In this document: one piece after another, positions 11,789-39,360 of the stretch | Layout: each line of letters starts with the position of its first letter | How positions within the stretch are numbered: position 1 is the first letter of the stretch | NCBI GenBank assembly: GCA_009193035.1 | Contig: SWDT01000047.1 | Span: forward strand, 124,001 to 188,000 | DNA: 64,000 nt | From: Halicephalobus mephisto | Taxonomy: Eukaryota; Nematoda; Chromadorea; Rhabditida; Panagrolaimidae | Direction: 5' to 3' | Notes under the pieces: generated by a model | Database searches by the model: none | Told to the model about the DNA's origin: nothing | What the model saw: the letters and a program-made list of their open reading frames with translations, nothing else | Translations under genes and position numbers: made by a program

Positions 11789-14700
11789 ATGGCTGATGAC
11801 CCTGCTGTTGTGAATTTTCAAAAAAAATCTTCCGATTCAGACATGGATCAAGAAGAAAAAACGGATGAAGAAGGATTAGAGATGAAGGTAAGTCCGGATA
11901 TAAATCGTCATTAATAATCCGTTTAATTAACAAACAAAATAGGTAGAATTACGAAGTTATAGTACATACAAAAAACGTAACTTTTGGTCCCGTAACAATT
12001 ACTTACTGTGACAAAAATGTAACACAATCGTCGCATTTTTCGTGGATATTTAGTATTTGTGACGAAAATTATGCCGATTTGCATTTGTTACTGTACCAAA
12101 AGTTGTTTTTTTGTATGTAGTACGGTAAGTGGACAGAATATTATTGAGAATTCTTAGTTTTCAGAATTTGTTTGACAATTCTGGAGCCTTCGAGAACTAC
12201 GGAATAATTACTTTTTTAAATTTTCGATCTCAACTGGAAAACTTTAAAAATCCGTGTTAAAATAATTTCTTCGAAAATTTATACCAAAAATTTCTTTGTT
12301 TAAAATCATTTTTAAAATTTTAAAGAACTATTTAAATGCAAAATTTAACAATTTTCTATTCCAATCAGGAAGTTTTGGATATATTTGTTCAAACAATTTC
12401 TACAAAAATTTATTGTAAACATTTCTATTTTTTACAGTGACGCAATGATTTTCAATTTTTTAAAGGTCATTGAAATGGAAAAAGAAGGTCATTTTCGGTG
12501 AATTTTATCCCTACAATCCGTGAATATCATTTTAGAACACCTGTAAGGTTTTGAATTTTTGGAAATGAACTAAATATTTTGGAAATTTCTAGAATCATGT
12601 ATAATTAAAAAAAGTAATTTTTGATTCCATAACAATTGCGAAATGTAATAAAAATGTGACGATTGTGTCACACTTTTCATGAATATTTGAGATTTGTGAT
12701 AAAAATTGGAACGTAATTGTGACGATTTGCATTTGTTACTGTATCAAAAGTTACGCTTCTTTTTGTGTGTAATTGTTGTGTTCTAGTTATAATCTTGTTA
12801 AGGTAGAAACAGGAAGAATATTACTAATCTTTACTCAACAATAAGACAGACAATAATTATATATCTTCCCTACAAGCCAACTGAGAGTCGCTTATGCTCT
12901 ATAGTGCTGCGTATTATCAAAATTGAGACTCAGAGTTCGAGATTCTAATTCTTCGTATTAAGACACGATTCATGAATAATTGTGATTCGAGAAATCTAGA
13001 TATCCAATTTCATCGACTTAAATGAAAGAATATTTTACAGTAAGAAAAATTCATAGATGTGCCTTAACACGAAAAATTAGAATTTCGATTTCTAATTCTG
13101 AATTTTAATTTTGATAATATGGACCACAGTATTTCATTATTTCTGATCTTCAGGTTGTCTCTTCAAATCCTCTCTTTCTAATATAGTTTCTATCTCGACA
13201 TATCTGAACTTAAAACATCTAAAAATCCGCATTGAAAAATTTTTGATTTTTATAATATTGCTATTTTTAGAATCTACTTAAAATTTTGAAGTTTGTTAAT
13301 TCATATAAAACAAAACTCCATCAGTTTCGATCTCTACCGACAAGATCGGAAAATCTGAATCAAGATAATATTTTCGAAATTTTGATTTTTATAATAAAAT
13401 TATTTCCAAAATTTATTGAATATTTTCAGTTTTTTAAAATTACGTAAAAATTCGTAATTTCCGGTCTTAATCGGAGAAGTTTAAAAATTTCCGACAAAAA
13501 CATTTTCGAAATTTTATGATAAATATCTTCAATTGAAGAAAATCCGAAGAGCAAACTATTTTTAAAAATTTCGCAATTAAAAAATCATAAAAAAACTCGT
13601 TTTGAAAATTTTGAAATGAATTTTTATCATTCGGTTATCTTTGTTTATCTTCGATTTTTGAATATTTTTATCGATTATGGTCATCGGAAATTATTAAATT
13701 CACTGAAATGTTAATTTTTGATAATTATTCAAAAACCTAAGAAAACAATGATAAATACATTTTTTACATTTTATTCCTATTTCGTAAAAATAAAAAAAAC
13801 CTACAATAATTTTAAAATTAATTTTAATTTTTTGAATTCACAGTGAAATTTGAGAAAAAATAAAAAAAATTCGAAATTTTTTAAAAATAAATCCAAAAAA
13901 CTACAGTTATACAAAATGTAAATCATTTTTAAAAAAAATGAAAATAGTAATTTTATTAATTTTTATAGTCTATTTTTGTGCAATTTCAATTTTTAATTAT
14001 TTTTAAATTTAAATTTTTCTAACAAAATCGTTATGATTGAAAATATGGAATTTTATATATATAATTGTGCAGTTCAGAGCTTTGAAGAAAATAAATCAGT
14101 TCTTTTATAATAACGAGATTTCAGATAAAAGCAAAACTTCAATTTGATGACGTACCGGTAGAATTGGGACCTCCTTCGATTTCTGAACGAAGAAATGAGA
14201 GTTTCCAAGACGTCGATCTTGAGATAAACGACCAGAAGGATAAGAGACAGTATTCGAGTTACACATTGCCGAGGGAAACTAGGAAAAAAAGCCTCGGGGA
14301 AAAAATCAAGGTAAAATCACTCTTAAAAATCATGATTTCGAAAATTTTCTGGAACTATAAAAACTCAAAGAATTTTTGAGAATATTATTGGAATTTCTGA
14401 AGTTTTCTATAATCTTCAAAAATGTCATTAAAACTTCAAAATTCTTCCATAATCTCATGGAAAGATATAAAACACTCTAGAATCCAATCAAAATTCCAAG
14501 AATCATCCAACATATCGGATTTTCAAAATCAATGTTAAAGCAATTTTTAAACAACTTTTAACTTTAATTTTTACAGTACTAAAATCTGTTTGAAGTAATC
14601 TTATAAGTTCTAGAATGCCCTCGGAAGGAGTAAAGTAGAGGAGACTTTTGGTGCGAGGTTCTCAGCTTCTGCGCATGAAGCCAGAGATCGTCGTCTGAGA

Positions 14701-17700
14701 TCCATTGATTCTCTGGATTCAGAAGTTTCAACCATAGGATGTCCTCCGAAAACTTTAGAGAGACCACCAATGATCGACTTCTACAGACACTCCGCTCATG
14801 GAGAGGAGAAATCTCGTCCGACGATGACGGAGCTGATTCGTGGAAGTGAAAACGAAGACGAAACTATCGAGGAATTCGAAGAAAAGAACGCGAAAATTGT
14901 GGAATCACAACTGCAATCAACGAAAAATGGACAATCGAACAAAATCCACCCATCCGAGAAGGAACTTCAAAAGCCTACGGATGACCAACCAAAGAACAAA
15001 TACGGATGGATTCAAGGAGTTCTAATCCGATGTGTGGCGAACATCTTCGGTGTCATGCTTTTCCTAAGAATGTCCTGGGTTTCTGGACAAGCAGGAATCC
15101 TGATGGGTTCTATGATCGTCTGCTTAGCTTCCCTCGTTACAATGATCACATCTGTTTCCATGAGCGCCATCTGCACTAACGGATTCGTCAAAGGCGGAGG
15201 AGCTTACTACTTGGTAAATCGGCATTTGAAACACGCAATTCAATAACTTATTCAGATTTCCCGTTCTCTCGGTCCAGAATTCGGAGGATCGATTGGAGTT
15301 CTCTTCAGTATAGCCAATGCCGTCGGAGCCGCCATGTATATAGTCGGTTTTGCTGAAAACTGTCGAGATGTTATGGTCGACCATGACATTACTATCTTTG
15401 ATGGAGGACTGAATGATGTCAGAGTTATCGGATTAAGTAAGTAATTGTCCATTATTTGTGCCTAATTGGCTCTATCTGATTATCTATAATTCCTTTTTGT
15501 ATAGTAGTTCAGTTGTGTGCTTGTCTATTTGGTCATTTATCCATAAATCCACTTATGGATATAGCAAATATATATTTAATCAGAAATGTTCTGAATGCTC
15601 ACGCTAAAGTTTTTTCGTCAATGCTCCAGATGACACAACACTAGGAGATATAACATCACAAACATCATAACTTCTAGATATGCATTTCTTGGATGAAAAT
15701 TATGAATATCATTTCTGATTGTTTCTATTTAGAACTTATTATTTTGCATTGCTTCCATGAGAAACTGATAATAATTAACCTAACTTTGAAATTCTATTGA
15801 TCTCAATGTTCTCGAAAAAGGAGTCTTCATGTTATTTATATTCTTTAAACTCATTAATTTTCAGTAACCTGTGTGATTCTGATGACAATCGTATTCATCG
15901 GTCTCGGATTCGAGTCAAAAATGCAACTAATCCTCCTTTGTATTCTCTCCGCTGCCCTCGCTGACTTCTATATTGGGTCCTTTATTCCTCCCGATCACAG
16001 TCAGCAACTGAAAGGAATGACGGGGTACTCTTGGGCAACTTTTCAGGAGAACCTCTACCCGTCCTTCAGACAAGGGTATAACTACTTTTCTGTCTTTTCC
16101 ATTTATTTCCCTGCTGCTACTGGCATCATGGCTGGAGCCAACATCTCCGGAGATCTGAAGAACCCCACTAAGGCTATTCCAAAAGGAACTTTACTTGCTA
16201 TTGCCATTACAACTGGTGCTTATCTGTCCTTGGTGTGGATAATGGGGGCTTCTGTCATCAGAGATGCTGATGGGATCAATGTCCCTGAACTCTTGAATGC
16301 TTCAACAGCTCTGATAAATAACGGATGGTGGCCAAGTTCGGTTTTCGCTACATTATTTGGAAAAGGTTACCAAAACTATCACCAACCAGAATGTGTGAAC
16401 GACTCCAGTTGCAAATATGGGCTCATAAACAATTTCCAGGTGAATATTTAGTTTTATTTGACGCTAAAATCCCTTCGAAATTTGTAATTTTATCTAGAAT
16501 TTAATGAAATGTTCTAAAATTTCCCTGATTTTTATTCAAGCTTCTAGAATACTCAAATCTTATGGAACCTTTTAGAATATCCCGAAATTTCTAGAAATTA
16601 AAATTCAATATCTGAGAACTTGATTTTTAACCTTTTCTCAGAATTTAAGAAATTTCCTTGAAAGTAATTTTGTAAACATTTGAAGTTCTAATTTTTAGAA
16701 TAATATTATATTAATTTGTTTCAGATTTTCGAAGTCATCGCAGCGTTCGGCCCATTGGTATTTTTCGGCATGGCTTCATCTACCCTCTCTTCCGCCTTAC
16801 TTTGCCTTGTTTCTGGTCCTAAGATCTTCCAAGCCATCTGCAAGGACAAGATCTTCCCTTACATTTCCTACTTCGCCACAGGGTATGGAAAGAATCTGGA
16901 GCCAAGAAAGGCCTACTTCCTCTGTTTCATAATTGCTTGTTTGATCATTGGTATCGGAGACTTGAACACCATCGCCCCGATTATTTCCAACTTTTACCTC
17001 TGTACCTATGCCTTGATTAATTTTGCTTGTTTCGATACGTCATTCGCCAAGTCCCCTGGATTCAGACCAAGTTTCAAATACTACAACCTCTGGGTCAGTC
17101 TAATTGGAGCACTTCTGTGTATATGCATCATGTTCGTCATCTCTTGGTTCAACGCTTTGTTGACCTTCATGTTCTTCGGACTTTTATTCCTCTACATGAC
17201 TCATAGGAAACCAGATGTGAATTGGGGATCTTCAACTCAAGCTCATAGTTACCGTCACGCTCTCCAATACGTACAGAAGTTAGAAGGCATCGGAGAACAT
17301 GTTAAAAACTACCGTCCACAGATATTAGTATTGACAGGAAATCCAGCTGCAAGACCTAGTTTGGTAGATTTTGCTTATGCAATTACAAAGGGAAATAGTC
17401 TTCTCATCTGCGGTCACGTCGTTCCGGTAAGTTGATTTTTTGACTTTATATATTATGAAGCAGAGCAATAACTGTTGTGATTTCTTCAATCATATATGGA
17501 CACTACAATGTGTAGTAACTTTGGAAGATAGATAAGGACTAATATATTTTTTGCGGGCTTCATTTAGAAGTTTCTAGATCTAAGCTGAACATAGTTTTAA
17601 AGCATTAATTGTGGAATCATGTAAAATTAGAAAACTCACCAAGAATGAAAATCATCAAGTAGTCTTGTTTAATTCATATAACATTCTGGAAATTCTTATT

Positions 17701-19239
17701 GAGATTCTTATATAACAAAACCGATTTCTAATTTTTATAATTTGATTTTCTTTAAAAATCTGACTTTAGTACTCGCTCAATGACTCTGTCCATCAGATGA
17801 TGCACAAACTTCGAGAACAAATGAAACAATGGTTCCGAAAACGCCACATAAAATCCTTCTACCTCTCCGTGGCGAATTCAGATTTCCGTCAAGGGATTCA
17901 GAGTCTCATTCAAATTTCTGGATTGGGTAGACTGAAACCGAATATCTTGTTGATCGGGTTCAAACAAGACTGGGCTTCCAATGGAGTCGAAGGACTAAAA
18001 GAGATCAACAATTATTTTGGAGCTATTCGAGATGCTTTCTCAAGTCAACTGGCTGTCTGTATTCTCAGAAACGGTCAAAATAGACTTGATTTCAGTGAAG
18101 TTATCCAGAAGCATAATCTGCTTTCTGGATTCCCGAAAATTGAACCAGTGAACGAGCGGGCCTCTGCAAAAGGGCATTTCAAGATCAAAGGAAGAAGAGC
18201 AAGCGCTGTTTTGATGAATACGATCAACTTCAACCAGAACCCAGATGTAGAAGCTGCTCGAAACGTAGTTAGTATGGATTCTACCGGAGACGCAAGAAAA
18301 CTAAGTGATACTGAATCCAGTGAAATGTCGGTGGAAAGCAGTTTGAGAGGGATTCCAAAGCACTACAATGAAGAGCAAGTTGAGGTTTTGACTTCCATCA
18401 ACAAGTTCCAATTCAAAGTCAAGAAAGGAACGATCGACGTCTGGTGGCTCTACGACGATGGTGGATTGAGTTTGCTCATCCCCTACTTGCTAACTCAAGG
18501 CAAAAGCTATCTCGAGGTTGGTTTTTAGAAGCAGATGTTATAATTAAACAAAAAACGATAGTTTTGTGAGTCTTTCAATTACTGTGTAGAGCAAGTGAGA
18601 ATAGAAAATGATAAATATAGTAAATTGAAACAAATTTGACTATTTTTATCCTCATCCTCTTTTGAGAGTTTTAATTTGCTAAAAAATATCAACTTGTATT
18701 TAAATAATTTCAAAAAATCTTTTTAATTGAAAAAAATCATTTAGTAATTATGTTTCTAGAACTCTAATCTGCGTGTTTTCACTTTATCATCGCATTCGAA
18801 AAGAATCGACGAACAAGAACGGAATCTGGCTTCTCTGTTGACGAAGTTCAGAATCGACTGTGCCGAAGTGACTGTTTTGTCCGATTACTCCAGAGCCCCG
18901 AGTCCGAAGCTGCTCAGTGACTTCGAGGACCTCATTACGCCCTTCATCTACGACGACACAACTTCGGAATCCTCGTCCACCCCTTCTAAAGACGGTCTGA
19001 TCTCCAAGACTGAACTTATTTCTCAACAGGAAAGGACCTGGAAGACCCTGAGGACCGCGGAGCAGCTGCAGAAGTACTCCTCGAAGAGCGACCTCATTGT
19101 GATTACCCTCCCTGTACCCCGAAAAGGCCTCATCAGCGGTTGTCTCTACATGGCCTGGCTCGACGTCATGACTCGAGGACTTCCCCCCACCCTCTTCGTC
19201 CGCGGTAATCAACAATCTGTTCTTACTTTTTATTCTTAG
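11789..19239 (+). CDS. NKCC-type cation-chloride cotransporter, tandem copy 1 (about 1189 aa)
   Basis: Eight exons: 11789-11887, 14125-14310 (start +/-1), 14614-15213, 15256-15436, 15865-16439, 16725-17426, 17770-18516, 18760-19239. The family is SLC12A, NKCC branch: a cytosolic N-terminus with the PP-IDFYR...[10 protein letters not shown] segment, 12 membrane spans beginning [13 protein letters not shown], and a long cytosolic C-terminus ending QSVLTFYS exactly as in NKCC1. Visible ion-site features: NIFG in TM1, AMYIVGFAE in TM3 (Tyr codon at 15337, K+ site), FPAATG in TM6 and TLSSAL in TM8 (Na+ site). So electroneutral Na-K-2Cl transport is expected. The N-terminus has no RFxV/I motif; the place where copy 2 has GRFKF reads AKLQF. 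AATAAA at about 19258. My count of exon 2 is one base short of phase; I treat this as a counting limit because homology is continuous. Confidence 0.9.
11961..12121. mobile_element. MITE family 1 copy in intron 1 of NKCC copy 1
   Basis: Inverted ends ACATACAAAAAACGTAACTT and AAGTTGTTTTTTTGTATGT; flanked by AGTAC-like sequence. Same core as 10650-11135. Confidence 0.65.
12604..12770. mobile_element. MITE family 1 copy, second in intron 1 of NKCC copy 1
   Basis: Left end is degraded (AAAAAAAGTAATTTTTGATT); right end CAAAAGTTACGCTTCTTTTT is well kept. Core CAATTGCGAAATGT and GACGATTTGCATTTG match the family. Confidence 0.6.
12800..13200. repeat. Intronic repeat shared with NKCC copy 3 introns
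   Basis: Contains AGGAAGAATATTACTAATC, ACAATAAGACAG, a CTTATGCTCTATAGTGCT segment and a later TTCAGGTTGTCTCTTC-type segment. Related ordered blocks occur at 34040-34240 and 34255-34430 in intron 2 of copy 3. Either an old repeat or conserved intron sequence. Confidence 0.35.
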
Positions 19240-22806: not shown

Positions 22807-25800
22807 ATGGCTGATGACCCTGCTGCTGTGAATTTTCAAAAAAAATCTTCCAATTCAGACATGGATCAAGAAGAAAAAACGAACGATGAAGGACTACAGA
22901 TGAAGTTTAACTCGGATGTAAGTCTTAGTAATTTATATTTAATTAGAAAAATAACTAATGTTTATAAACTTTTTTGAATTACTGTATTTAAAAAATCATA
23001 AAATATTGTGGAAGATTTTTTTCAAAATTTATCGAATATTTTTGAAATTTATTCTGACACAAAATTGAAAATTCGCAAAAAAAATTTATTTGAGACGATG
23101 GTATTAAAAATTAAATATTTTTTTGTATTTTATTTCTAGAAAACTCATCAGCGTTTGTAAATAACTTCTAAAATGAGTTATTTGCAGTACGATTTTTCTG
23201 ATTTTTATAGAAAGTTTGTATTTTATAATTTTTGCAATAAAATCTAAGAAGACAGCAAAAGTTTCAAATCACAGAGCTCAAAGATCTGCAAATGTTTATA
23301 AATAGATTCGTCGTAAGGTGATTTTGAAACCCGTTATGATCAAAAGCACACTTTATACGTTCTGCAATTAATTTAAAAAAATTCAAAAATCTACGTATTA
23401 GCGAAGTGTGTCTCAATATCGAAGAAATTCTAAAATTCTAAATCCTTAAAATCAATTTTTTAAATATTTTTGTATTTTTTATTTATTCAAACTTTTTCGA
23501 AATTATCTCATCAAATTCATTCTGATCGGAAGTACGGAATTTGACGTCAAAGATTACAAAATTCGAATCTTCGAAAAAACCACAGTGATTATTATTAATT
23601 TTTAGGTAAAAGGAAGGTTTAAATTCAATGAAGTGACTATGGAACCCCAACCCCAACTCCCTCCGGTTTCTGAACGAAGAAATGAGAGTTTCCAAGACGT
23701 CGATCTTGAGATAAACGACCAGAAGGATAAGAGACAGTATTCGAGTTACACATTGCCGGGAGAAAACAAGAAAAAAAGTCTCGGGGAAAAAATCAAGGTA
23801 AAATCAATATCATTAAGAATGTAGAAAATCTGAAAATTTCACAGAAATTCCTAAAGCGTTTTATGATTTAGTTAAAACTTTTACAACTTTTTAAAATTAA
23901 AAGTTCTTGAAATTTCTAAAAGATTTTCGAGAATCGGTTTGAAGCAATTTATACTTTTTAAACAATATGATTCAGTTGAGATAATCTCAGATATTCTAGA
24001 ATGTCCTCGGAAGGAACAAGGTCGAGGAGACCTTCGGGGCACGATTCTCGGCTTCTGCTCATGAAATCAGAGGCCGTCGATTGAATTCCATTAATTCTGT
24101 ACACTCAGAAGGCTCCAACATTGGCTGTCCTTCGAAGACTTTTGAGATGCCTCCGATGATAGACTTCTATCGGCATTCCCTTCAAGGAGAAGACAAATCT
24201 CGTCCGACGATGAAGGACCTGATTCGTGGAAGTGAAAACGAAGACGAAACCATCGAGGAATTTGAGGAAAAAAACGCGAAAATTGTGGAATCACAGTTAA
24301 AATTTACGAAAAATGGGCATTCAAACAAAATTCATCCATCCGATAAGGAACTTCAAAAGACTACAGATGACCAACCGAAGAACAAATACGGATGGATTCA
24401 AGGAGTTCTAATCCGATGTGTGGCGAACATCTTCGGTGTCATGCTTTTCCTGAGAATGTCCTGGGTTGCTGGACAAGCAGGAATCTTGATGGGTTCTATG
24501 ATCGTCTGCTTAGCTTCTACCGTTACGACCATTACGGCTCTCTCCATGAGCGCCATCTCCACTAACGGACTTGTCAAAGGCGGAGGAGCTTACTACTTGG
24601 TAAATCAGTATTTGAAACACGCAATTCAATAACTTATTCAGATTTCCCGTTCTCTCGGTCCAGAATTCGGAGGATCGATTGGAGTCCTCTTCAGTATAGC
24701 CAATGCCGTCGGAGCAGCTATGCACATCGTCGGATTTGCCGAAACCTGTCGAGACCTCATGGTCGGCCGGGATATGACCATTTTCGATGGCGGAATAAAC
24801 GATGTCAGAGTTATCGGATTAAGTAAGTATTTATTTGTCCTAAACATTAAAGCTACTTTGCTCATTTGACTGTCCATTTACTTTTGGATTTGTTGATATA
24901 TCCAACAAATAAGTATTTGATCAGAAGCTTCTACGAAATAGAAATTAAGTTGCTTTCGTAAACATTTCAGATGAAACATTATTAAGAGTTATAATGTCTC
25001 AAAAACTAAATTTGTACATGCATATTACATTGATGTAAATTCAGGAGATCGAATATGTTCTAGAATAAGACTCTCGATTCAAATAGTTTCATATAGAAAG
25101 AATAATAGTTGATGTAATTTTATAACTTTGTTAATCATAGGGTTCTCAAAAAAGCATTTTGTTTTATTGATGAAAGTTAAATTAATTTATTTCCAGTAAC
25201 CTGTGTGATTCTGATATCCATCGTGTTCATCGGCCTTGATTTCGAATCTAAGATGCAGTTGTTCCTCATTATCATCATCTTCGCCGCTCTCGCTGACTTC
25301 TACATTGGGTCCTTCATTCCTCCTGATCATGGCGACCAGTTGATGGGAATAACGGGGTACTCTTGGGCAACTTTTCAGGAGAACCTCTACCCGTCCTTCA
25401 GACTAGGGTATAACTACTTTTCCGTTTTTGGTATTTACTTCCCTGCTGCTACTGGCATCATGGCTGGAGCTAACATCTCCGGGGATCTGAAGAACCCAGG
25501 TAAAGCCATCCCAAAGGGAACTCTACTGGCTATTGCCATTACAACCAGTGGCTACCTCTCTTTGGTTTGGATCACAGGAGCGTCTGTTGTTAGAGATGCT
25601 GATGGAATCAATGTCCCTGAGCTCTTAAACACCTCAATGACTTTGATGAACAATGGATGGTGGCCGAGCATGATCTTCACCAAAGTATTCGGGAAGGGCT
25701 ACCAAAACTACTACCAACCGGAATGTGTGGGCACTTCAAGTTGCAAATACGGGCTCATGAACAACTTCCAGGTAAATTTTGTACTTTATTCAACGTTGAG

Positions 25801-28800
25801 ATTTATGGGGAAGTTTCAAAAGCTTTTAAAATCTAGTACAAACTCTAGACAATGCTTCAAACTAAGAACTTCGAAAGCTTTCAGAAGAATTTGAGAATTC
25901 GTTCTGAGATAGCTTCATAAAAATATTGATTTTTATTTCTACAGTAATTTAACAATATATTCACTTCAGATTGTCGACGTGATATCAGTGTTCGCTCCTT
26001 TGGTGTTCTTTGGAATGGCCGCGTCCAGTCTTTCTTCCGCCTTACTTTGCCTCGTTTCTGGTCCTAAGATCTTCCAAGCCATCTGCAAGGACAAGATCTT
26101 CCCTTACATTTCCTACTTCGCCACAGGGTATGGAAAGAATCTGGAACCAAGAAAGGCTTACTTCCTCTGTTTCATAATCGCTTGTTTGATCATTGGTATC
26201 GGAGACTTGAACACCATCGCCCCGATTATTTCCAACTTTTACCTCTGTACCTATGCCTTGATTAATTTTGCTTGTTTCGATACGTCATTCGCCAAGTCCC
26301 CTGGATTCAGACCAAGTTTTAAATACTACAACCTCTGGGTCAGTCTAATTGGAGCACTTCTGTGTATATGCATCATGTTCATCATCTCTTGGTTCAACGC
26401 TTTGTTGACCTTCATGTTCTTCGGACTTTTGTTCCTCTACATGACTCATAGGAAACCAGATGTGAATTGGGGATCTTCAACTCAAGCTCATAGTTACCGC
26501 CACGCTCTCCAATACGTACAGAAATTAGAAGGCATCGGAGAACATGTTAAAAACTACCGTCCACAGATATTAGTATTGACAGGAAATCCAGCTGCAAGAC
26601 CGAGTTTCGTGGACTTTGCTTACGCAATTACAAAGGGAAATAGTCTTCTCATCTGCGGTCACGTCGTTCCGGTGAGTTTGTTTTTTAAATTCCACATACA
26701 ATAAGTAAGATAATTCATCTTTGAGGGGTACTATGATATCAACTATGATTTCTTAAACACTAACCTTACTTAACACGTTGACGACAATACGAGTCATTTC
26801 TGGGTCGTAAGTTGGTGGCGCGTTGGGACAATACGACCCAGAAATGAGTCGTAAGAAACGAACGCCAAAAAAACGGCTGGTCCCAATCGCCGCCAGCCAA
26901 AAACACGCTCGGTCGTCAACGTGTTAATATAAGGTTTTGAGTGAAAAATACTTACACCGTAAGCTTTCTATTAGGTAGTGAGATGAAACTGAGTGGATAA
27001 GACAGAAATATGCAGTTAAGTAAGGTACTTTCTATATCATCAAAATTATTTAAATATATTAGTAACAAGGTATTTTTATGCTCTCAAGACGGTTTAAATA
27101 TATTAGAAAATATGATCATAAACTTATAAAAATGTATAATGTTATTAGGAAGTTCGACATCAACATATACACATTCTGTTTTTCGAATGGAAAAAATTTC
27201 CAATAATTACTAAATTCGTCATTTTCTTCATGATCTTAAACATTCCTTAGGTCAAAGAATAAGACACGATTTCGTAATTCTATTAAAGATTAATCTCCAA
27301 CTTTGTAAATTGCCCTACCGAAAACGGATTTCTTCATTCATATCATGAAAATATATTTTTAATTTTATTTATAATTTTATTTTTTAAAAAATCTGACTTC
27401 AGTACTCGCTCAATGACTCTGTCCATCAGATGATGAACAAACTTCGAGAACAACTGAAGCCCTGGTTCCGGAAACGTCACATAAAATCTTTCTACATGTC
27501 CGTTGCGAATACAGACTTCCGTCAAGGGATTCAGAGCCTTATACAGAGTACTGGATTAGGTAGACTGAAACCGAATATCTTGTTGATCGGGTTCAAACAA
27601 GACTGGGCTTCCAATGGAGTCGAAGGATTAAATCAAATTAAGAATTACTTCGGAGCGATCCAGGATGCGTTCTCGAGCGAACTGGCCGTCTGTATTCTCA
27701 GAAACGGTGATGAAGGATTGGACTTCAGTGAGGTCATCCAGAAACATAATCTGCTTTCCGGATTCCCGAAAATCGAACCGGTAAATATAAGGTCTTCCAT
27801 GAAAGGCCACTTCAGGATCAAGGGCAGAAGAGCTAGTCTTGTCTTGGCCAATGCCGTCAACTTCAACCAGAATCCAGATGCCGAAGCTGCTCAAACCATC
27901 AGCAGAACGGATTCTGTTGGAGAAGCAAGGAAGTCCAGCGACACCGAATCCAGTGAAATGTCGGTGGAAAGCAGTTTGAGAGGGATTCCAAAGCACTACA
28001 ATGAAGAGCAAGTTGAGGTTTTGACTTCCATCAACAAGTTCCAGTTCAAAGTCAAGAAAGGAACGATCGACGTCTGGTGGCTCTACGACGATGGTGGATT
28101 GAGTTTGCTCATCCCCTACTTGCTAACTCAAGGCAAAAGCTATCTCGAGGTCAGGCTTAAAAAATGATTAACAACAATTACAATTTTAAAAAAATATGAT
28201 TTTCGAATTTTTTGAAGCTATTTCAGAGAGTGGGATTTATCACAAGAGAAAAAACTGATAATCCATAGTTCAAATTTCCTGATTCATTTTTATTTATTTT
28301 ATCCAAGTTTTAAATTTCTAAAAAGATCCACAAATTTGTATCAAAACGATTTTGAATATTTTATTTTTTAATTTTTATAAAAATAGTAATTATTGAATAA
28401 TTATGTTTTCAGCACTCTAATCTGCGTGTTTTCACTTTATCATCGCATTCGAAAAGAATCGACGAACAAGAACGGAATCTGGCTTCTCTGTTGACGAAGT
28501 TCAGAATCGACTGTGCCGAAGTGACTGTTTTGTCCGATTACTCCAGAGCCCCGAGTCCGAAGCTGCTCAGTGACTTCGAGGACCTCATTACGCCCTTCAT
28601 CTACGACGACACAACTTCGGAGTCCTCGTCCACCCCTTCTAAAGACGGTCTGATCTCCAAGACTGAACTTATTTCTCAACAGGAAAGGACCTGGAAGACC
28701 CTGAGGACCGCGGAGCAGCTGCAGAAGTACTCCTCGAAGAGCGACCTCATCGTGATTACCCTCCCTGTACCCCGAAAAGGCCTCATCAGCGGTTGTCTCT

Positions 28801-28892
28801 ACATGGCCTGGCTCGACGTCATGACTCGAGGACTTCCCCCTACCCTCTTCGTCCGCGGTAATCAACAATCTGTTCTTACTTTTTATTCTTAA
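22807..28892 (+). CDS. NKCC-type cotransporter, tandem copy 2, with NCC-like TM3 histidine (about 1195 aa)
   Basis: Exons 22807-22917, 23606-23797, 24000-24599, 24642-24822, 25197-25771, 25970-26671, 27403-28149, 28413-28892 (last start +/-1). From exon 3 on, every exon has the same length as in copy 1. Same architecture: IDFYRHS and [10 protein letters not shown] in the N-terminus, [13 protein letters not shown] in TM1, FPAATG, SSLSSAL, and a C-terminus ending QSVLTFYS. Notable residue: TM3 reads AMHIVGFAE, His329 by my count (CAC at 24723-24725), where copies 1 and 3 have Tyr. In NKCC1 this Tyr coordinates K+; in vertebrate NCC it is His. The N-terminus reads GRFKF, a near-miss of the RFxV/I docking motif. 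An in-frame ATG at 22744 could extend the protein, but MADDPA is the start shared with copy 1. AATAAA near 28919. Confidence 0.9.
26770..26927. mobile_element. piggyBac-like MITE (TTAA-flanked) in intron 6 of NKCC copy 2
   Basis: Perfect terminal inverted repeat TTAACACGTTGACGAC at both ends, so the element sits between TTAA sites. An inner hairpin is formed by GAGTCATTTCTGGGTCGTA and TACGACCCAGAAATGAGTC. About 158 bp, far richer in GC than the intron around it. TTAA target duplication is the mark of piggyBac elements. Confidence 0.75.
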
Positions 28893-29299: not shown

Positions 29300-29870
29300 A
29301 CAATTTTGGTCCTGACTGGAAAATTCTAAAAATTTTAATATGAATTTTTGCAGAATTTTAAATAAGAAAATGTTTTTAAAACTATGTAGAATAATGTAAA
29401 AGTTAATTTTTACAATTTCGGTCCTGACTGGAAAGTTCTAAAAATTCGTGTTGAGAGAATTTTTTGGAATTTTAAAGATTTTAATTTTTTAATAAATATA
29501 AATATTATTCTATAATTTTCTAAATATTTCTAAAAACTTAAAATCTAAGTTCCACAATTTCGGTCTTGACTGGAAAGTTTTAAAAATTCGTGTTGAGAGA
29601 ATTTTTTGGAATTTTAAATATTTTAATTTTTTTAATAAATATAAATATTATTTTATAGTTTACTAAATATTTCTAAAAACTTAAAATCTAAGTTCCACAA
29701 TTTCTGTCTTGACTGGAAAGTTCTAAAAATTCGTGTTGAGAGAATTTTTTGGAATTTTAAGTATTTTAATTTTCTAAATATTTCTAAAAACTTAAAATCT
29801 AAGTTCCACAATTTTTATTCTTAATTGGAAAATTCCCAAAAATTTGTCAGAATTTTAAACTGAAAATTTA
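29300..29870 (+). repeat. Cluster of five dispersed-core repeats
   Basis: The core GTCCTGACTGGAAAGTTCTA followed by AAAAATTCGTGTTGAGAGAA recurs near 29309, 29420, 29559, 29704 and 29818 (last degraded), with a period of about 140 bp. Spacers are AT-rich and partly alike (CTTAAAATCTAAGTTCCACA). The same core occurs on either strand near 50640, 53040-53300, 56260-56670 and 62790-62930. Confidence 0.6.
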
Positions 29871-30110: not shown

Positions 30111-30620
30111 CTAGAATTATTTTGACCGTTTTGTCTTCTTTCGAACAGAAAATCCGGCATTTATTCATTCTACAACGATTTTGAAAATTTTTAATCGAAA
30201 TTCATATATCAATTTTTTTTTAAAAATAAAAATTTTTAAAGATTTTTTTCTCGTTGCTGTGGGAGATTTTCCATCTTTTTTCGGTTTCGCTACTGAATAG
30301 GACCGTTGCTTCGGGGAAATGCCTTGAGAAAACTTCCGAAAATCACGTGAACGATTAAGAAAAATCACCGTAAAAATTTTCAATGATTAATGATAGTGAT
30401 TCCAAGCCAAACAAGCCGTCGAGTGGCCGGTTTGACTGGTTTGTGGCCATTTTTCACAACTGAAATTGATTGAAAAGCTGGCAGCTGGCGGCAAACCGGG
30501 GCCAAATAGTTCTGCGGTTGATTGGCTTTTTATTATTTGGGATTTTAATAAACTTCCTTTATTCTTTTTAAAACTTATTTTTTCATATATATTTTTTGTT
30601 TCCATATTCACCCGTAAGTT

Positions 30621-30910
30621 GTCACCTATGATTTCTTCTACTTTTTATATTATTTTAACAAAATTTTTGGGATTTTTGTGAATTATTTTTTTACCTAATT
30701 TCTTCCATGGACTTTTTCCTAATTTTCCTACTTTTTTCATATATCATTATTTTATGTTTTTCCTCTAATCTCGCCTATAGGTCGTTACCTATGATTTCTT
30801 CTACTTTTTATATTATTTTAACAAAATTTTTGGGATTTTTGTGAATTATTTTTTTACCTAATTTCTTCTGTGAACTTTTTCCTACTTTTTTCATATATCA
30901 TTATTTCATG
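30621..30910 (+). repeat. Tandem duplication, 163-bp period
   Basis: The segment starting CACCTATGATTTCTTCTACT recurs at about 30784, and both copies continue through ACAAAATTTTTGGGATTTTT and CCTAATTTCTTC. The copies are nearly identical, so the duplication is recent. Confidence 0.8.
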
Positions 30911-32410: not shown

Positions 32411-35400
32411 ATGTCTAGTAAAAATAATGCATCAAGACGATATTCTGATGATCCTCTGCTTCCTAAATATGATGGAAATGAAAGACGAGGAAGTAATTCT
32501 AGCAGATTTCAAGTATGTTTATTTTTAAATTTGAAAAAAGTAGAATTTAAAGTTTTTGAAATAGAATAAAAAAGTTTTGAAATTTTCTAAAATGTTGTGG
32601 GAACTTTTAGAATCTTTTGGGAATTCCAAAGAAATTTTTAATCTCTAAGAATTTCATAAAAGTTTCTAAATTTTTTTAAAGTTCAGTGAATTTAAAAAAA
32701 TTTTATATTTTTAGAATTTTAATGTTTTTTAATTTTAAGAAATTTTTATTTTTCTGGAATTTTCGAGAATTTTAACTTTTTAAAATTTTATTTTTCTGGA
32801 ATTTTCGAGAAGTTTAAGATTGAAATTTTTAAAATGAAAATCTATGACTTTGGGTTTTAAGTTTTAAAGAAATTGTATTACTTTATGTTGGAAAAAATCG
32901 TAAAAATTTCTTAATTTTCATAATATTGTGATTGTTTGATGAAGGAAGAGTTTACAAAAGCTGCTAAGTACACTCACGAGTTTTGCGGCACTGCGCGAAG
33001 TTGCTACAAGTATGGGTGGGACGTTGGTCTAACTGCTTTATTAGCTATCTTCATTAATGATTCGTTGCTTCCTTAGTGAAGTGGATGATGTCTTGCTTTT
33101 GTGCTTTATCAAATCTTTTTGGTCGTTGAACTTAAAAGAATTTTTTTTTAAATCATAGATCATTAAAATTCGTAACATTTAAATGGTATTTGATCATATT
33201 TTTGATTTTTTTGTTTTAAAAATTCGCTTTTTCGGACATTTTTTGTTTGTGCAAGAACATCTAAGCCGACGAAATCTATTCATTGATGCCATTTATTCCA
33301 TTCTAGACCAATGGCTTGTAAATTGAATTTTTTTAAAATGGCATTTTTAATTTTTTTTTGTTAGTTTTCAGTGAAATTTTATTATTTTGTAAGGATTAAA
33401 AGTATCTGATTAAACGCGGAAGTTTTTGAAAAATTTAAAAGCCTCTTATTTTTTAGTTTAAGTGGGGTTAATGAAATTGTCAAGATGAGAAAAATTTCAT
33501 CAAGATTTATGGTGAGATAAAAAAATATACTTTTTTAATTTTTGTTTTAAAGAAAATTTTTTTAGGTAACGAAATCTGATGAAGAATCAGCAAATTTTCA
33601 AGAAATGAATCCTCAAGAAGAACTTATTAAAAATGGATTAGATATCAATATGGAAGAATCATTAAGGAAAGTTAGTTCTGCTGGTCGATTTAAGGTTTTT
33701 ACAAATCCGAATTCTAATCAAAGGGATAGAGCAGAAACAGCGCCTCCAGATACCAAGGAAGATGAAACAAATGGAACCCGTGTTCATTTTTCTGTTGATG
33801 AAAAAGATTCGCCGAATTTTAATGACACTGTAGGATCGGAAAATGTGGATTCTACCTTGGCTCATACAAAAAGTTGGAGGTGAGTACTTTTTAGTTTAAT
33901 AAGAAAAATATTTTTAAAATGGTTTATATAAAAAATTTTAATATTTTTAAAATTTGTTAATTTTAGTTTTTATGATTTTGATTACTTTTTTGGAAAATTA
34001 AATGGAATTAGTCTAGAAATGTAATTTTAAAAATATTAGAATGGAAAACAAAAAGATATTAATGGTTTTTACTAGAACAATAAGATGCAATTTTTGTAAT
34101 TTTCATAAGACCATTGAGCGTCTTTTATGTCCTACAGTATTCCACACTGCTTGATATTCAGGCTATCAATTCAGGTCCTTTTTGGTTTAATTTCTGTCTT
34201 AATAGTTATGAATTTAGTTTTGTTTTTTATTTTTAAGTTATTATTGGGATAGAAAACAGAAAAATATTAATAATCTATACTAGGACAATAAGGCAGGTAT
34301 AATTTTTATATCATTCTATAAAATAAAACCAAGAAACTCACTTATGTTCTACAGTATTCTAAGTTTTCTGATATTCAGGTTATTGCCTCAGGTCATTTCT
34401 TTCTAATCTAATTTCTGTTCCAATAAAGAAATTAGAACTTGACAAATAATTAAGAGATTTACGTCTTTAAAGTTGTTTGGAATTTGTTGTTTTTGAATTT
34501 TTTAAAAGTACATTTAGCTGATGAGCTGTAAGATGAATTTGTAATTTGTTATGTAGCGTCATTTTAAAGTAAAATTTTTCAGACAATGTGCTACATTAGA
34601 ACATCCTCCGATTATCGATTTTTATCGAAATACGATGGGACCTGATGGTATTACAAATACGAGACCTTCGATGATGGAACTTATTAGAGGAGAAAAAGTT
34701 GAACAAGATGACTTGAAAGACTTTAAAGATAAAAATGTTGAAATTGTTGAAAGTCAAATGACACCTGAAAGAGATCCTAAATTATTAGAACAATTTCAAC
34801 CTCCTCCATCAACTCCAAGATCGAAATTTGGATGGATAGAAGGAGTTTTTTTTCGATGTATTTTGAATATTTTTGGTGTTATGCTATATCTTCGAGTAAG
34901 TTGGGTTGCTGGACAAGCAGGAATCCTACTTGGTACGTTGGTTGTGTTATTAGCATCATTGGTAACAACAATAACGACTTTGTCTACGTGTGCTATATGT
35001 ACTAATGGAGTAAGTTTTTAAAGTTTTAATTTAATAATTTTAATAATTTAGATTTGATGAATTATGTAGGTGTTGTGATTTTTTAAAATATTAGTAGTTT
35101 TATATATGAAAGTTAATTTTAGAGGATGGACAGAGGGTTATGTACTCTGTATGTTGTGGTTCAGAAAGTTTCGGGTAGATTGTATTTCTAAAAAATCAAA
35201 GAATTTTTTAAAATTATGAAATAACGTAAAATTGAGATTTTAGAAAATTTTCATTTTTAAAAAGTTTTGAAATTTTTGTTGAAATAAGTTTATAAAAAAA
35301 TTATTTTCATTTTGTAATATATAGTTAATTACGGTGGTTAGTGAATATTTGAACACAAGTATCTAAAATTGAGATTTTAGAAAATTTTGATTTTTAAAAA

Positions 35401-38400
35401 GTTTTGAAATTTTTCTTGAGATAATTTTATAAAAACATTTTTTAATTTCATAATGTGATCGATTATAGGATGTCAAAGGTGGAGGAGCGTACTTTCTTAT
35501 TAGTCGGTCGTTGGGACCTGAATTTGGTGGATCTATTGGATTAATTTTTTCTGTTGCTAATGCTGTTGGAGCTGCTATGTATGTTGTTGGTTTTGCAGAA
35601 ACTGTGAGAGATTTATTATTAGAATACGGTATAACGATATTTGATGGAGGAATGAATGATGTGAGGTTAATTGGATTGGGTAAGTTTAGCTCTAAAAGTA
35701 AAAATTAATGGTTATTTTTAGTTACTTGTATTATACTAATGGGTATCGTATTCATTGGGACTGGTTTTGAATCAAAAATGCAAATGGGATTATTGGTTAT
35801 ATTAACTGTGTCGATTTTGGATTACTTTTTTGGAACTTTTATACCAGTTAATGATGAACAAAAACTTAAAGGTGTTACTGGATACAGTACAGCAACATTG
35901 TCGGATAATTTTCTTCCTAAATTTCGTGATGGATATAATTTTTTCACTGTGTTTTCTATATATTTCCCAGCAGCAACAGGAATCATGGCAGGAGCTAATA
36001 TTTCTGGAGATTTGGCAAATCCTCAAAAAGCTATTCCATTAGGAACTTTGTTGGCTATATTTGTAACTACAATGGTTTATATAGCGACTATATGGTCAAC
36101 TGGTTCTACATGTGTTAGAGATGCTAATGGAGTGGATTTTCCGATGTTGGATCCTAATTCTAGTTCGATATTTGGAAGTTATATTGAACCAGAATGTACA
36201 TTTAATGGAACATGTAAATATGGTTTGATGAATTATTTTCAAGTTATGGAAGTAGAAGCATTTTGGGGACCGTTGATTACAGCTGGAATTTTTGCAGCAA
36301 CTTTGAGTTCTGCTTTGGCTAGTTTGGTTAGTGCACCGAAAATTTTCCAAGCTGTTTGTAAAGATAGATTATTTCCATATATTAATTATTTTTCAAAAGG
36401 ATCGGGAAAAGATGAAGAACCAAGAAGAGCCTATATCCTGGGATTTGTTATTTCGATGATAATGATACTTATTGGAGATTTGAACGCAATTGCACCTATT
36501 ATATCGAATTTTTTCTTGTGTTCGTATGCATTAATTAATTATGCATGTTTTGACAATAGTTTTGCTGATTCACCTGGATTTAGACCTGGATTTAAATATT
36601 ATAATATGTGGGTTAGTCTTATTGGAGCACTTTTGTGTGTTATTGTAATGTTTATTGTGTCATGGTCAACTGCATTATTGACGTTTATATTTTTTGGAAT
36701 ATTATTTATGTATATTGCACATAGGAAACCAGATGTTAATTGGGGATCATCAACTCAAGCTCATAGTTATAGAACAGCGTTATTAGGAGTTACTAAATTG
36801 GAACATACAGATGAACATGTTAAAAATTATCGTCCACAGATATTAGTATTGACAGGTAATCCTGCTGCAAGACCTAGTTTAGTGGATTTTGCATATAATA
36901 TTACAAGAGGAAATAGTTTAATGGTTTGTGGATATGTTGTACCGGTGAGATTTTTTAATTTATATTTAAAAAAGTTTTGTAATTTAGTTTAAAAAATTAA
37001 TTTATCCTTGAAAAATGTTTTTTTAATTTATGTTTAAAAAAGTTATTTAGAAAATTGTTTTAATTTACTTTTAAAGTTTTATTTGAATTTATTTTTTTAA
37101 AATGTGTTTTTTAGTATCCTCCATGTGATTCTGTATTTACTGTTATTAGAAGATTGAATGTGCAATTACGTGATTGGCTTAAAAAACGACACATTAAATC
37201 ATTTTACACATCTGTAGCTAATCCTAATTTGAGAGCAGGAGCTCAAGCTTTGTTGCAGACAGTTGGACTTGGAAGATTGAAACCGAATATTGTTCTTGTT
37301 GGTTTTAAACAAAATTGGGCATCGAAAGGATTAGAAAAATTATCATCGATAAATGAATATTTTGGAATTATTCAAGATGTATTCGATAATAATATGAGTA
37401 TGATGGTTTTAAGAAATGCAGGAGGAGGATTGGATTTTAGTGATTTAATGAGAGAACAGAATTTGGGAGATGTTTCGAAATTGAAATTACCTGAAGTTAC
37501 TGCTGCAACAGCTTTGGAAAGAAATGAGTGAGTTTTTTAGAATTAGATTACTGTGAAAATGGGATTTTGTGGTTTTTAGAATGGGAATTTTTATAATATT
37601 TTGGAATCTTTAAAAATTTAGTAAGAATTTCTAGAATTATTTAGAATTTAGTAGGTTTTTAGAATGGGAATTTTTATAATATTTTGGAATTTAACAGAAA
37701 TTTTTGGAATCTTTAAAAATTTAGTAAGAATTTCTAGAATTATTTAGAATTTAGTAGGTTTTTAAAATTCAATATGACTTGAAAATTAAATTTTAGAAAC
37801 TTCATTAAAATATAGGGAATTTGAAGTATTTAAAATTATTTGGAATTTAGTGAAAATTTCTAGAATCTTTGAAAATTTAAGTTTTTAGAAAATTCTGGAA
37901 ATACATCTCGAGTTAATTTTGTAATAATTTCTATTTCTGAATTTTGCAAGTATATTATTAGAAATTAGTGTTTTTACGAAAATATCTGAACATGAATTTT
38001 TAGAAACTTTGATTTTTGATGTTTCTGCTGTTTTGAAAGTTTTTCGTAAAATTTAAATTGCAAAATTAAATGTTTTAGAAGTGGAAAAGTATCGAATGTT
38101 TCGGAAGAAAATCGACCTAATCCGGAATCAGACATGACACATGAAACAACATCTGGAGCAACTGATGAATTGGAAGATGAAGATTCACCCTTGAATATTT
38201 TGAATGATTATATGGATGATTCGGATGAAGAAACTGAATCTGATGAAGAACAAGAAGAAAATTCATCGAAACCGAGAGATCCATCGACAACAACAGATTG
38301 TAGTGAATCTGAAAATGGGAAATTGAAAATAGATAAATATTCTGAAGAATGTTCTCAACAACAGACGAAAATAAAATTTACAGAAGATGTAGAAGCAAAT

Positions 38401-39360
38401 ATTCATATGTCTGAAAAAAATCATTTTGAAAAGATGAGTTTAATCAGACGACGGAGGTAAGTTTTTTTTGTTTTTTATAGCTTCGACGGGCTTGCTATCG
38501 CTTTGGAATGCAGGATATTTATTTTTAATTTTTTGAAGGAAGAAACGAAGGGCACGGAACACCATTTTTGGGATAATGAGGTTAGAAATGGATGTTTGGT
38601 GTTGTTTAACTTGTTTGTGCTTGTTTGTCCTGATTAACTGTTTTAATTTTGTTTAATTTTTTAAAGATTTTTTTAAATTTAAAATTTTAGTTCACGACGA
38701 TTGACGGCTGCTCAGAGGGAATTGTTGTCTTCTATCAATAGATTTCAAAGAAAAGTCAAAAAAGCGATTATTGATGTGTGGTGGTTATATGATGATGGAG
38801 GATTAACGTTGTTGATACCGTATTTGTTGACTCAACCGAAATCTTATCTGGAAAATGCACAATTGAGAGTATTTACTATTTCGACATCTAGTTCGGGAAT
38901 GGAACAAGAAGCAAGAAATATGGCTGCGTTGTTAAGTAAATTTAGGATTAATTTTAGTGATGTTAATGTTATACCGGATATTAACAAAAAACCGCAATTG
39001 GAAACGTAAGGTTTTTTAATTTTTTGAATAATAAGTTGTGTTTTTAGGAGACAAGAATTTGAAAAATTGATACAGCCATTTAGATGTCAAGTATCTGATG
39101 GGAATTTTAAAGAAGGAATGATCACAGAAACGGAATTGTCGTCTCAGAAAGACAAGACTCAAAGACAGTTAAGAATTTCAGAACTTTTAAGACAACATTC
39201 AAATGAAGCGGATTTGATTGTTTTGACATTACCTGTACCGAGAAAAGGTCTAGTAAGTAGCTGTCTATATATGGCATGGGTCGATGTTATGACGAAAAAT
39301 CTTCCACCGACATTGTTAGTTAGAGGAAATCAGCAATCTGTTCTTACTTTTTATTCTTAG
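32411..39360 (+). CDS. NKCC-type cotransporter, tandem copy 3, diverged and AT-codon-rich (1231 aa)
   Basis: Exons 32411-32512, 33566-33879, 34583-35009, 35469-35679, 35722-36944, 37115-37527, 38079-38456, 38691-39005, 39048-39360; coding total 3696 nt, in phase. It is the most NKCC1-like of the three. Two RFxV SPAK/OSR1 docking motifs are present: SRFQ at the end of exon 1 joins V at the start of exon 2, and GRFKV lies near residue 72. A Thr sits before PPIIDFYR, like the NKCC1 regulatory Thr. TM1 [15 protein letters not shown]3 [11 protein letters not shown] (Tyr codon 35580), FPAATG and TLSSAL suit Na-K-2Cl transport. An acidic Ser-rich insert (residues about 915-1015) lies in the C-terminal domain; the end is QSVLTFYS. 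The exon plan differs from copies 1 and 2, and third positions are mostly A/T. AATAAA near 39427. Confidence 0.9.
32939..33076 (+). CDS. Possible 45-aa membrane micropeptide inside intron 1 of NKCC copy 3
   Basis: ATG at 32939, TAG at 33074-33076. The predicted product begins [16 protein letters not shown], continues [14 protein letters not shown] and ends [15 protein letters not shown]: a short basic/polar segment, two cysteines and one hydrophobic span at the C-terminus. This stretch has ordinary codon-like composition inside an intron that is otherwise almost only A and T. No AATAAA or acceptor was found next to it. The YGW segment before the span faintly recalls small outer-membrane mitochondrial subunits, but I do not recognise the family. 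It could also be an unspliced alternative exon. Confidence 0.35.
   Translation: MKEEFTKAAKYTHEFCGTARSCYKYGWDVGLTALLAIFINDSLLP
34040..34430 (+). repeat. Duplicated block in intron 2 of NKCC copy 3
   Basis: Two units of about 200-240 bp share the order GACAATAAGRYR, TTATGTYCTACAGTATTC, TGATATTCAGGYTAT, TCAGGTC and TAATTTCTGT. A related unit lies in intron 1 of copy 1 (12800-13200). Confidence 0.5.
35090..35172 (+). repeat. Intronic block shared with RRP9 intron 1
   Basis: TAGTAGTTTTATATATGAAA, then GAGGATGGACAGAGGGTTAT and GTACTCTGT. The same order with few changes is at 44180-44258. Confidence 0.7.

What the first reader, a model, noticed from the sequence alone, without database searches (positions are those of the whole stretch)
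24642..24822. NKCC copy 2 has the NCC-type Tyr-to-His change at the K+ site
TM3 of copy 2 reads AMHIVGFAE (CAC at 24723-24725), while copies 1 and 3 read AMYIVGFAE and AMYVVGFAE. In NKCC1 structures this TM3 Tyr helps to coordinate K+, and vertebrate NCC, which does not move K+, has His there (AMHTVGFAE). The Na+-site serines (LSSAL), the TM1 NIFG and the TM6 FPAATG segments are kept. So copy 2 may be a Na-Cl cotransporter that arose from an NKCC inside a nematode tandem array, convergent with NCC.
Basis: partly seen in the sequence, partly recalled or inferred. Interest (0 to 1): 0.9.

Follow-up and report, generated by a model that had tools for sequence, protein, structure and literature searches.

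The report
Nematode salt transporter losing potassium site
One of three neighbouring nematode genes for a sodium-potassium-chloride transporter has swapped the tyrosine of its potassium site for the histidine used by the kidney sodium-chloride transporter, and carries the cysteine that goes with it there, so it likely moves salt without potassium, a change that appears to have arisen several separate times in animals.

Summary
Copy 2 is an intact 8-exon gene (22807-28892, 1195 aa) with His329 (CAC, 24723-24725) where copies 1 and 3 have Tyr; the other four K+ ligands and the Na+-site serines are kept. Trees place copy 2 beside copy 1 (100/100) and reject a clade with vertebrate NCC (AU p 1e-4), so the change is independent. 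It is not unique: His needs five changes on the trees (vertebrate NCC, apple snail, Limulus, the nematode Plectus, copy 2), Asn at least four, one in a nematode clade that holds a fourth gene of this genome. A TM8 position (human NCC C472) goes with it: Ser in 194 of 197 Tyr-type sequences, in 1 of 54 His/Asn-type; it ranks first of 484 columns. Copy 2 has Cys there. Copy 1 has Tyr plus Cys, a rare mixed state, but gene conversion may have copied the Cys. dN/dS between copies 1 and 2 is 0.16. Best reading: copy 2 is likely a K+-independent Na-Cl cotransporter that evolved from an NKCC. Transport is untested; published swaps at this site (NCC H234Y, NKCC1 Y383F) kill transport, so an inactive or regulatory copy is a real rival.

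The parts
22807..28892 (+). copy 2, complete NKCC-type gene, 8 coding exons: 22807-22917, 23606-23797, 24000-24599, 24642-24822, 25197-25771, 25970-26671, 27403-28149, 28413-28892; 1195 aa
   Evidence: open reading across all eight exons with AG/GT borders; best PDB match SLC12A2 (7d10), E 1.5e-262
24723..24725 (+). CAC, His329 in TM3: the K+-site position (Tyr305 zebrafish NKCC1, Tyr383 human NKCC1, His234 human NCC)
   Evidence: residue role from passages of PMC10043231, PMC9784483, PMC7035313
26048..26050 (+). TGC, Cys580 in TM8: position of human NCC C472 (Ser in nearly all Tyr-type sequences)
   Evidence: equation with C472 by counting from the paired serines (inference from the motif)
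24426..24431 (+). Asn244-Ile245 in TM1, retained cation-site residues
25442..25453 (+). Pro444 to Thr447 in TM6, retained cation-site residues
26033..26038 (+). Ser575-Ser576 in TM8, Na+-site serines
24716..24800 (+). divergent island holding the His codon: 23 of the 24 copy 1/copy 2 differences of this exon; 1 difference in the 74 bases before it
26033..26600 (+). probable gene-conversion tract between copies 1 and 2 (9 differences); the 60 bases before it hold 20; includes the Cys580 codon
27963..28892 (+). second near-identical stretch in coding sequence, end of exon 7 and exon 8 (exon 8: dS 0.026)
11789..19239 (+). copy 1, NKCC-type gene, exons 11789-11887, 14125-14310, 14614-15213, 15256-15436, 15865-16439, 16725-17426, 17770-18516, 18760-19239; 1189 aa; Tyr in TM3, Cys in TM8
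32411..39360 (+). copy 3, NKCC-type gene, 9 coding exons, 1231 aa; Tyr in TM3, Ser in TM8; nearest row Halicephalobus sp. NKZ332 P0008

Best explanation
Copy 2 is an intact NKCC paralogue under purifying selection in which the K+-site tyrosine of TM3 is histidine and the TM8 serine is cysteine, and it likely works as a K+-independent Na+-Cl- cotransporter that arose separately from vertebrate NCC. Shown: the residues, the intact gene, its place next to copy 1, low dN/dS, and the TM3-TM8 coupling across animals. Inferred: the tyrosine hydroxyl that helps hold K+ is gone; the remaining ligands (Asn244, Ile245, Pro444, Thr447) with His329 would hold Na+ instead, as reported for the human NCC structure; and Cys580 would fit the pocket to the new residue. 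Copy 3, and likely copy 1 with its unusual Tyr plus Cys pair, would still carry K+. The order of the two changes is open: Cys first as a permissive step, or Cys copied to copy 1 by gene conversion.
For: His329 stands opposite the Tyr of human NKCC1 in the phmmer alignment and aligns with His of vertebrate NCC. All other K+ ligands and the Na+ serines kept. Copy 1/copy 2 dN 0.061, dS 0.380 (0.16); 0.09-0.15 in exons 3-7, 0.42-0.51 in the short N-terminal exons 1-2. c1+c2 clade 100* (91 rows) and 100/100 (58 of those 91); with Panagrolaimus P0005 and Panagrellus P0007, both Tyr+Ser, 99* and 100/99. Clade with three vertebrate His rows (two NCC, one horse SLC12A10) rejected, p-AU 1.06e-4, lnL 352 lower (quick tree). 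TM8 column: Ser in 194 of 197 Tyr-type, 1 of 54 His/Asn-type, of the 251 Na+-type sequences with all sites filled; first of 484 columns by departure over nine lineage groups; independent pairs 6 same way, 0 opposite, 1 equal on average of 7, median sign-test p 0.031. In human NCC, C472 and H234 contact the same chlorthalidone hydroxyl, and C472A and H234A severely impair transport (PMC12365235, passages). Insect aeCCC2 and CG31547 did not raise Rb+ uptake (PMC6468792, passages); Anopheles and moth sequences that I take, untested, to be of that type read Asn at TM3 and Asn at the TM8 position where read.
Against: No transport, expression or read data. NCC H234Y and H234A and NKCC1 Y383F are inactive (PMC9645730, PMC7035313), so one swap can simply break the site; the NCC mutants were also unstable, and H234Q was only moderately reduced. 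[quoted passage not shown] aeCCC2 Li+ uptake was Cl--independent, and SLC12A10 is called apparently electrogenic (PMC11381001), so loss of the Tyr need not give electroneutral Na-Cl cotransport. Cys580 is shared with Tyr-type copy 1, so it does not by itself mark a changed ion choice. Plectus P0121 has His with Ser, and P0065 and P0184 have Tyr with Cys. With the narrower label Cys instead of not-Ser, the pair test has 5 pairs, none opposite, median p 0.25. No orthologue of copy 2 in another species was in the best-120 lists, so the His rests on one assembly.
Confidence: 0.58

Rival explanations
1. Copy 2 no longer transports, or barely does, and acts as a partner or regulator in dimers with copies 1 and 3; the histidine disables the K+ site without making a Na+ site.
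For: Tyr to Phe kills human NKCC1 (PMC7035313); NCC His to Tyr kills NCC (PMC9645730); these transporters are dimers (recalled).
Against: The other ligand and Na+ residues are kept and dN/dS over exons 3-7 is 0.09-0.15, so the pore is still selected; the residue chosen is the NCC one, and the TM8 residue is the NCC one too.
Confidence: 0.2
2. Copy 2 still needs or carries K+ (or NH4+), with lower affinity; His is a tolerated change.
For: Four of five K+ ligands kept; in KCC4 two of five ligands could be changed without significant loss (PMC11994965).
Against: The Tyr is one of the ligands that did matter in KCC4 (Y216F 62%, mock 38%) and is Tyr in 66 of 66 Tyr-type nematode-set sequences aligned (that set was chosen as Tyr-type, so this shows only how rare departures are together).
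Confidence: 0.13
3. Copy 2 is a Na+ leak or Na+-only pathway, as reported for mosquito aeCCC2.
For: aeCCC2 raised Li+ but not Rb+ uptake, and this was Cl--independent (PMC6468792); SLC12A10 is called apparently electrogenic (PMC11381001); Asn-type sequences of the insect and fish kinds are.
Against: Cl- sites of copy 2 look intact (TM1 GVM, TM6 GIM, TM10 Tyr648); the insect branch is far more divergent (1.1 changes per column) than copy 2 (0.07).
Confidence: 0.06
4. The CAC is a base error or an assembly mix.
For: Cannot be checked against reads here.
Against: Two of three bases of the codon differ from copy 1 and it lies in an island with 23 differences in 85 bases, so it is not a collapsed copy 1; the frame is clean over 1195 codons.
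Confidence: 0.03

Closest known systems
Nematode NKCC (SLC12A1/2-type; nkcc-1 family)
   Same: Sequence and four of five K+ ligands; sister to copy 1 and nested among nematode NKCCs
   Different: His for Tyr at the TM3 K+ ligand; Cys for Ser in TM8; no RFxV-type motif in the N-terminus, where copy 3 has two
Vertebrate NCC (SLC12A3)
   Same: His in TM3, Cys at the TM8 C472 position, same remaining ligands
   Different: Separate origin (AU p 1e-4); TM6 FPAAT where NCC rows have FPSAT
Insect CCC2/CCC3 (aeCCC2, CG31547)
   Same: An animal NKCC-type lineage with no Rb+ uptake in the published assays; sequences taken to be of this type lack the TM3 Tyr
   Different: Asn in TM3 and Asn in TM8, far more divergent
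Nematode Asn clade (Toxocara P0089, Parascaris, Steinernema, Meloidogyne, Panagrolaimus, Strongyloides, Rhabditophanes; fourth gene of this genome, L009)
   Same: Also lacks the Tyr and has Cys in TM8
   Different: Asn not His, Cys or Gly in place of the TM1 Asn in all eight rows, separate clade 100*

Membership tests
Na+-dependent cation-chloride cotransporter (SLC12A1-3 group) | Sequence homology over the TM core and C-terminal domain | tested here: met
   PDB SLC12A2 match, E 1.5e-262, residues 148-1195
Na+-dependent cation-chloride cotransporter (SLC12A1-3 group) | Paired Ser of the TM8 Na+ site | tested here: met
   Ser575-Ser576
NKCC by descent | Nested among NKCCs, not NCC | tested here: met
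NKCC by mechanism | TM3 Tyr at the K+ site | tested here: not met
   His329
NKCC by mechanism | K+-dependent, loop-diuretic-sensitive transport | not testable with these tools
   needs uptake assays
NCC (SLC12A3) | Descent from the vertebrate NCC lineage | tested here: not met
   AU p 1.06e-4
NCC (SLC12A3) | TM3 His | tested here: met
NCC (SLC12A3) | TM8 Cys at the C472 position | tested here: met
   Cys580; shared with copy 1
NCC (SLC12A3) | K+-independent, thiazide-sensitive Na-Cl uptake | not testable with these tools
   needs uptake assays

The most novel reading that the evidence does not exclude
Animals have converted K+-dependent NKCCs into K+-independent transporters again and again through the same two pocket positions, TM3 Tyr to His or Asn and TM8 Ser to Cys (or Phe, Tyr, Asn, Ala), and copies 1 and 2 catch this mid-way: a Tyr+Cys copy beside a His+Cys copy that is 91% identical over the TM core, with gene conversion shuttling the TM8 half between them.
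Probability: 0.42. Interest if true: 0.82.

Novelty: new variant of a known kind. Interest (0 to 1): 0.66.

Why it matters
[quoted passage not shown] The coupled TM8 position is a concrete candidate for that missing partner, and the copy 1/copy 2 pair, 91% identical over the TM core, gives a clean test system. It would also show that NCC-type salt uptake can be re-evolved by gene duplication in small invertebrates.

Tried and rejected
Tried without result: a search for fused copy 1/copy 2 annotations and for short fragments, besides the full-length search, listed no Halicephalobus orthologue of copy 2; only the copy 3 relative P0008 was listed. Each list shows the best 120 of 5439, 2210 and 362 hits, and searches scored only the candidates sharing most words. 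Literature searches for convergent NCC-type change in invertebrates (five papers listed) and for C472 with S538 (one listed) brought up no title or abstract on a TM3-TM8 coupling; this covers those searches and this open-access library only. Of the papers cited I saw passages or search listings, none whole.

Rejected: copy 2 as true NCC (AU test); copy 2 as decayed gene (clean frame, dN/dS 0.16); the idea that His is unique. TM6 Gly440 of copy 2, seen also in some other His/Asn types, was checked as a partner and dropped: 5 of 9 lineage groups depart, no excess.

Limits: exon borders of copies 1 and 3 were wrong and corrected (copy 1 exon 1 last; the alignments used a copy 1 longer by four N-terminal residues, outside the columns used). 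In one search one listed site (TM10 Tyr) was placed wrongly and is not used; the right residue is Tyr648. The ranking leaves copy 1 out of the Tyr group, counts vertebrate NCC and the fish SLC12A10-type rows as two groups although they are one clade, and scores Plectus (one Ala, one Ser) as departing; its p values are naive. The tree used 58 of the 91 rows, which used 91 of the 131 rows; I chose the rows, dropping near-duplicates and, also long rows. Change counts do not depend on a root; that Tyr is the old state rests on its majority and on the KCC outgroup row.

Full report
What is there. The window lies in a 59.9 Mb genome of 331 contigs. Three NKCC-type genes stand head to tail on the plus strand: copy 1 (11789-19239), copy 2 (22807-28892) and copy 3 (32411-39360). 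Copy 3 groups with a protein of Halicephalobus sp. NKZ332 (P0008), so the source is likely a Halicephalobus; genome size, and the window's G+C of about 32%, are near those published for H. mephisto (61.4 Mb, 32.1%; PMC6872716, passages). That is inference. A fourth gene of the group lies on another contig (L009).

The observation. Copy 2 has CAC (His329) at 24723-24725, in the exon 24642-24822; copies 1 and 3 have Tyr. The aligned residue is Tyr383 in human NKCC1 and His234 in human NCC. Passages of PMC10043231, PMC9784483 and PMC7035313 say that the Tyr hydroxyl coordinates K+ and that NCC has His. The four other ligands and the Na+ serines are kept.

Is the gene alive? Frame and splice borders are clean over 1195 codons. 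Copies 1 and 2 differ with dN 0.061 and dS 0.380; ratios in exons 3-7 run from 0.09 to 0.15, and are 0.51 and 0.42 in the short N-terminal exons 1 and 2. Of 296 positions conserved in at least 95% of 66 Tyr-type homologues (62 named nematodes, 4 unnamed), copy 2 alone departs at 3, copy 1 alone at 2, both at 13; His329 is one of the three.

Where it comes from. With the TM3 column left out, copy 2 is sister to copy 1 (100*; 100/100) inside a panagrolaimid group whose other two members have Tyr and Ser. A clade of copy 2 with three vertebrate His rows (P0151, P0157, P0237) is rejected (p-AU 1.06e-4). The His is thus separate from that of NCC.

It has happened before. On both trees His needs five changes, all forced by starred branches: vertebrate NCC, Pomacea (P0105), Limulus (P0176), Plectus sambesii (P0085, P0121) and copy 2. 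Asn needs four or five, four forced: fish SLC12A10-type rows inside the NCC clade, Lepidoptera, a tardigrade, and a clade of eight nematode rows (Toxocara, Parascaris, Steinernema, Meloidogyne, Panagrolaimus, Strongyloides, Rhabditophanes and the fourth gene here). Loss of Tyr overall needs eight changes; starred branches force five of them on the quick tree and seven on the careful one. P0166 (tardigrade) and P0176 (Limulus) sit on long branches and their places are less sure.

The partner position. In TM8, four residues after the Na+ serines (human NCC C472; Cys580 in copy 2), 194 of 197 Tyr-type sequences have Ser, while 53 of 54 His/Asn-type do not (His: Cys 25, Ala 2, Phe 1, Ser 1; Asn: Cys 9, Asn 9, Phe 4, Tyr 3). 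These are the 251 of 347 aligned rows that had the Na+ serines and all four sites filled (340 had the sites filled); seven fused or chimeric proteins were left out beforehand. Scanned over 484 columns, this is the top column by far (naive p 1.2e-18 against 2.6e-7 for the next). Independent pairs on starred branches: about 6 of 7 go the same way, none the other way, median p 0.031 (label not-Ser); with the narrower label Cys on the larger tree, 5 pairs, none opposite, median p 0.25. In human NCC, H234 and C472 both touch the 1-hydroxyl of chlorthalidone, and H234A and C472A severely impair transport; eel beta-NCC has Asn and Phe at the two places, and human NCC H234N still worked well enough to be tested for inhibition (PMC12365235, passages).

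Copy 1 is odd. It has Tyr with Cys, one of 3 such among 197. Either the Cys came first, as a permissive step, or it was spread by gene conversion: differences between copies 1 and 2 drop from 20 in 25973-26032 to 9 in 26033-26600, and the Cys codon (26048-26050) is just inside the flat stretch. The His codon is in a divergent island (23 differences in 24716-24800) next to another flat stretch (1 in 24642-24715). Exon 8 is also nearly identical (dS 0.026).

How it likely works. In human NCC the K+ place holds a Na+ ion, near His234 (PMC11381001, PMC9645730, passages). Copy 2 has that His, that Cys and the same other ligands, so it is likely a K+-independent Na-Cl cotransporter. Support from elsewhere: aeCCC2 and CG31547 do not raise Rb+ uptake (PMC6468792), and Anopheles and moth sequences that I take, without direct test, to be of that type carry Asn at TM3. 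Against: single swaps inactivate NCC and NKCC1, aeCCC2 Li+ uptake was Cl--independent, SLC12A10 is called apparently electrogenic, and nothing has been measured for copy 2. Copies 1 and 2 lack the N-terminal RFxV-type motifs that copy 3 has twice, so they may be controlled differently (motif role recalled).

Verdict. A real, well-placed change in a gene under selection, convergent with NCC, and one of a series. The new part is the coupled TM8 position and the copy 1/copy 2 pair. Papers were seen as passages (find mode), not whole.

Noticed in passing
L009:3698-7000 (G000:C184): Fourth NKCC-type gene of this genome, TM3 NASMNCVGLAE: member of a clade of eight nematode rows with Asn at the K+ site and Cys in TM8; the TM1 Asn is Cys or Gly in all eight. 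Gene model partial.
   Followed up: partly
32411-33879: Copy 3 carries RFQV (made across the first splice junction) and RFKV near its N-terminus; copies 1 and 2 have neither, only KFRI near the C-terminus that all three share.
   Followed up: partly
26770-26927: Nested inverted repeats (16-base perfect outer arms, 22-base inner arms) of mobile-element look in intron 6 of copy 2, which is 731 bases against 343 in copy 1.
   Followed up: partly
29412-29780: Tandem array of a 143-base AT-rich unit, 2.6 copies, 94% matching, just after copy 2; further arrays at 30578-30889 and 31597-31725.
   Followed up: partly
46438-48021: Nup85 nucleoporin (Pfam PF07575, E 4.7e-51), with a WD40-repeat reading frame before it at 44821-45603.
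   Followed up: partly
48534-52042: Minus-strand reading frames with C-type lectin (48537-49097) and VWA (51488-52042) domains; perhaps one gene.
   Followed up: partly
7062-7424: Piece of a chemoreceptor of the Srh/Sri type.
   Followed up: partly
P0003 and P0004 (Anopheles): Proteins named bumetanide-sensitive Na-K-Cl cotransporter consist of two transporter halves, both with Asn at the TM3 K+ site; the TM8 site reads Asn in one half of P0003 and both halves of P0004.
   Followed up: partly
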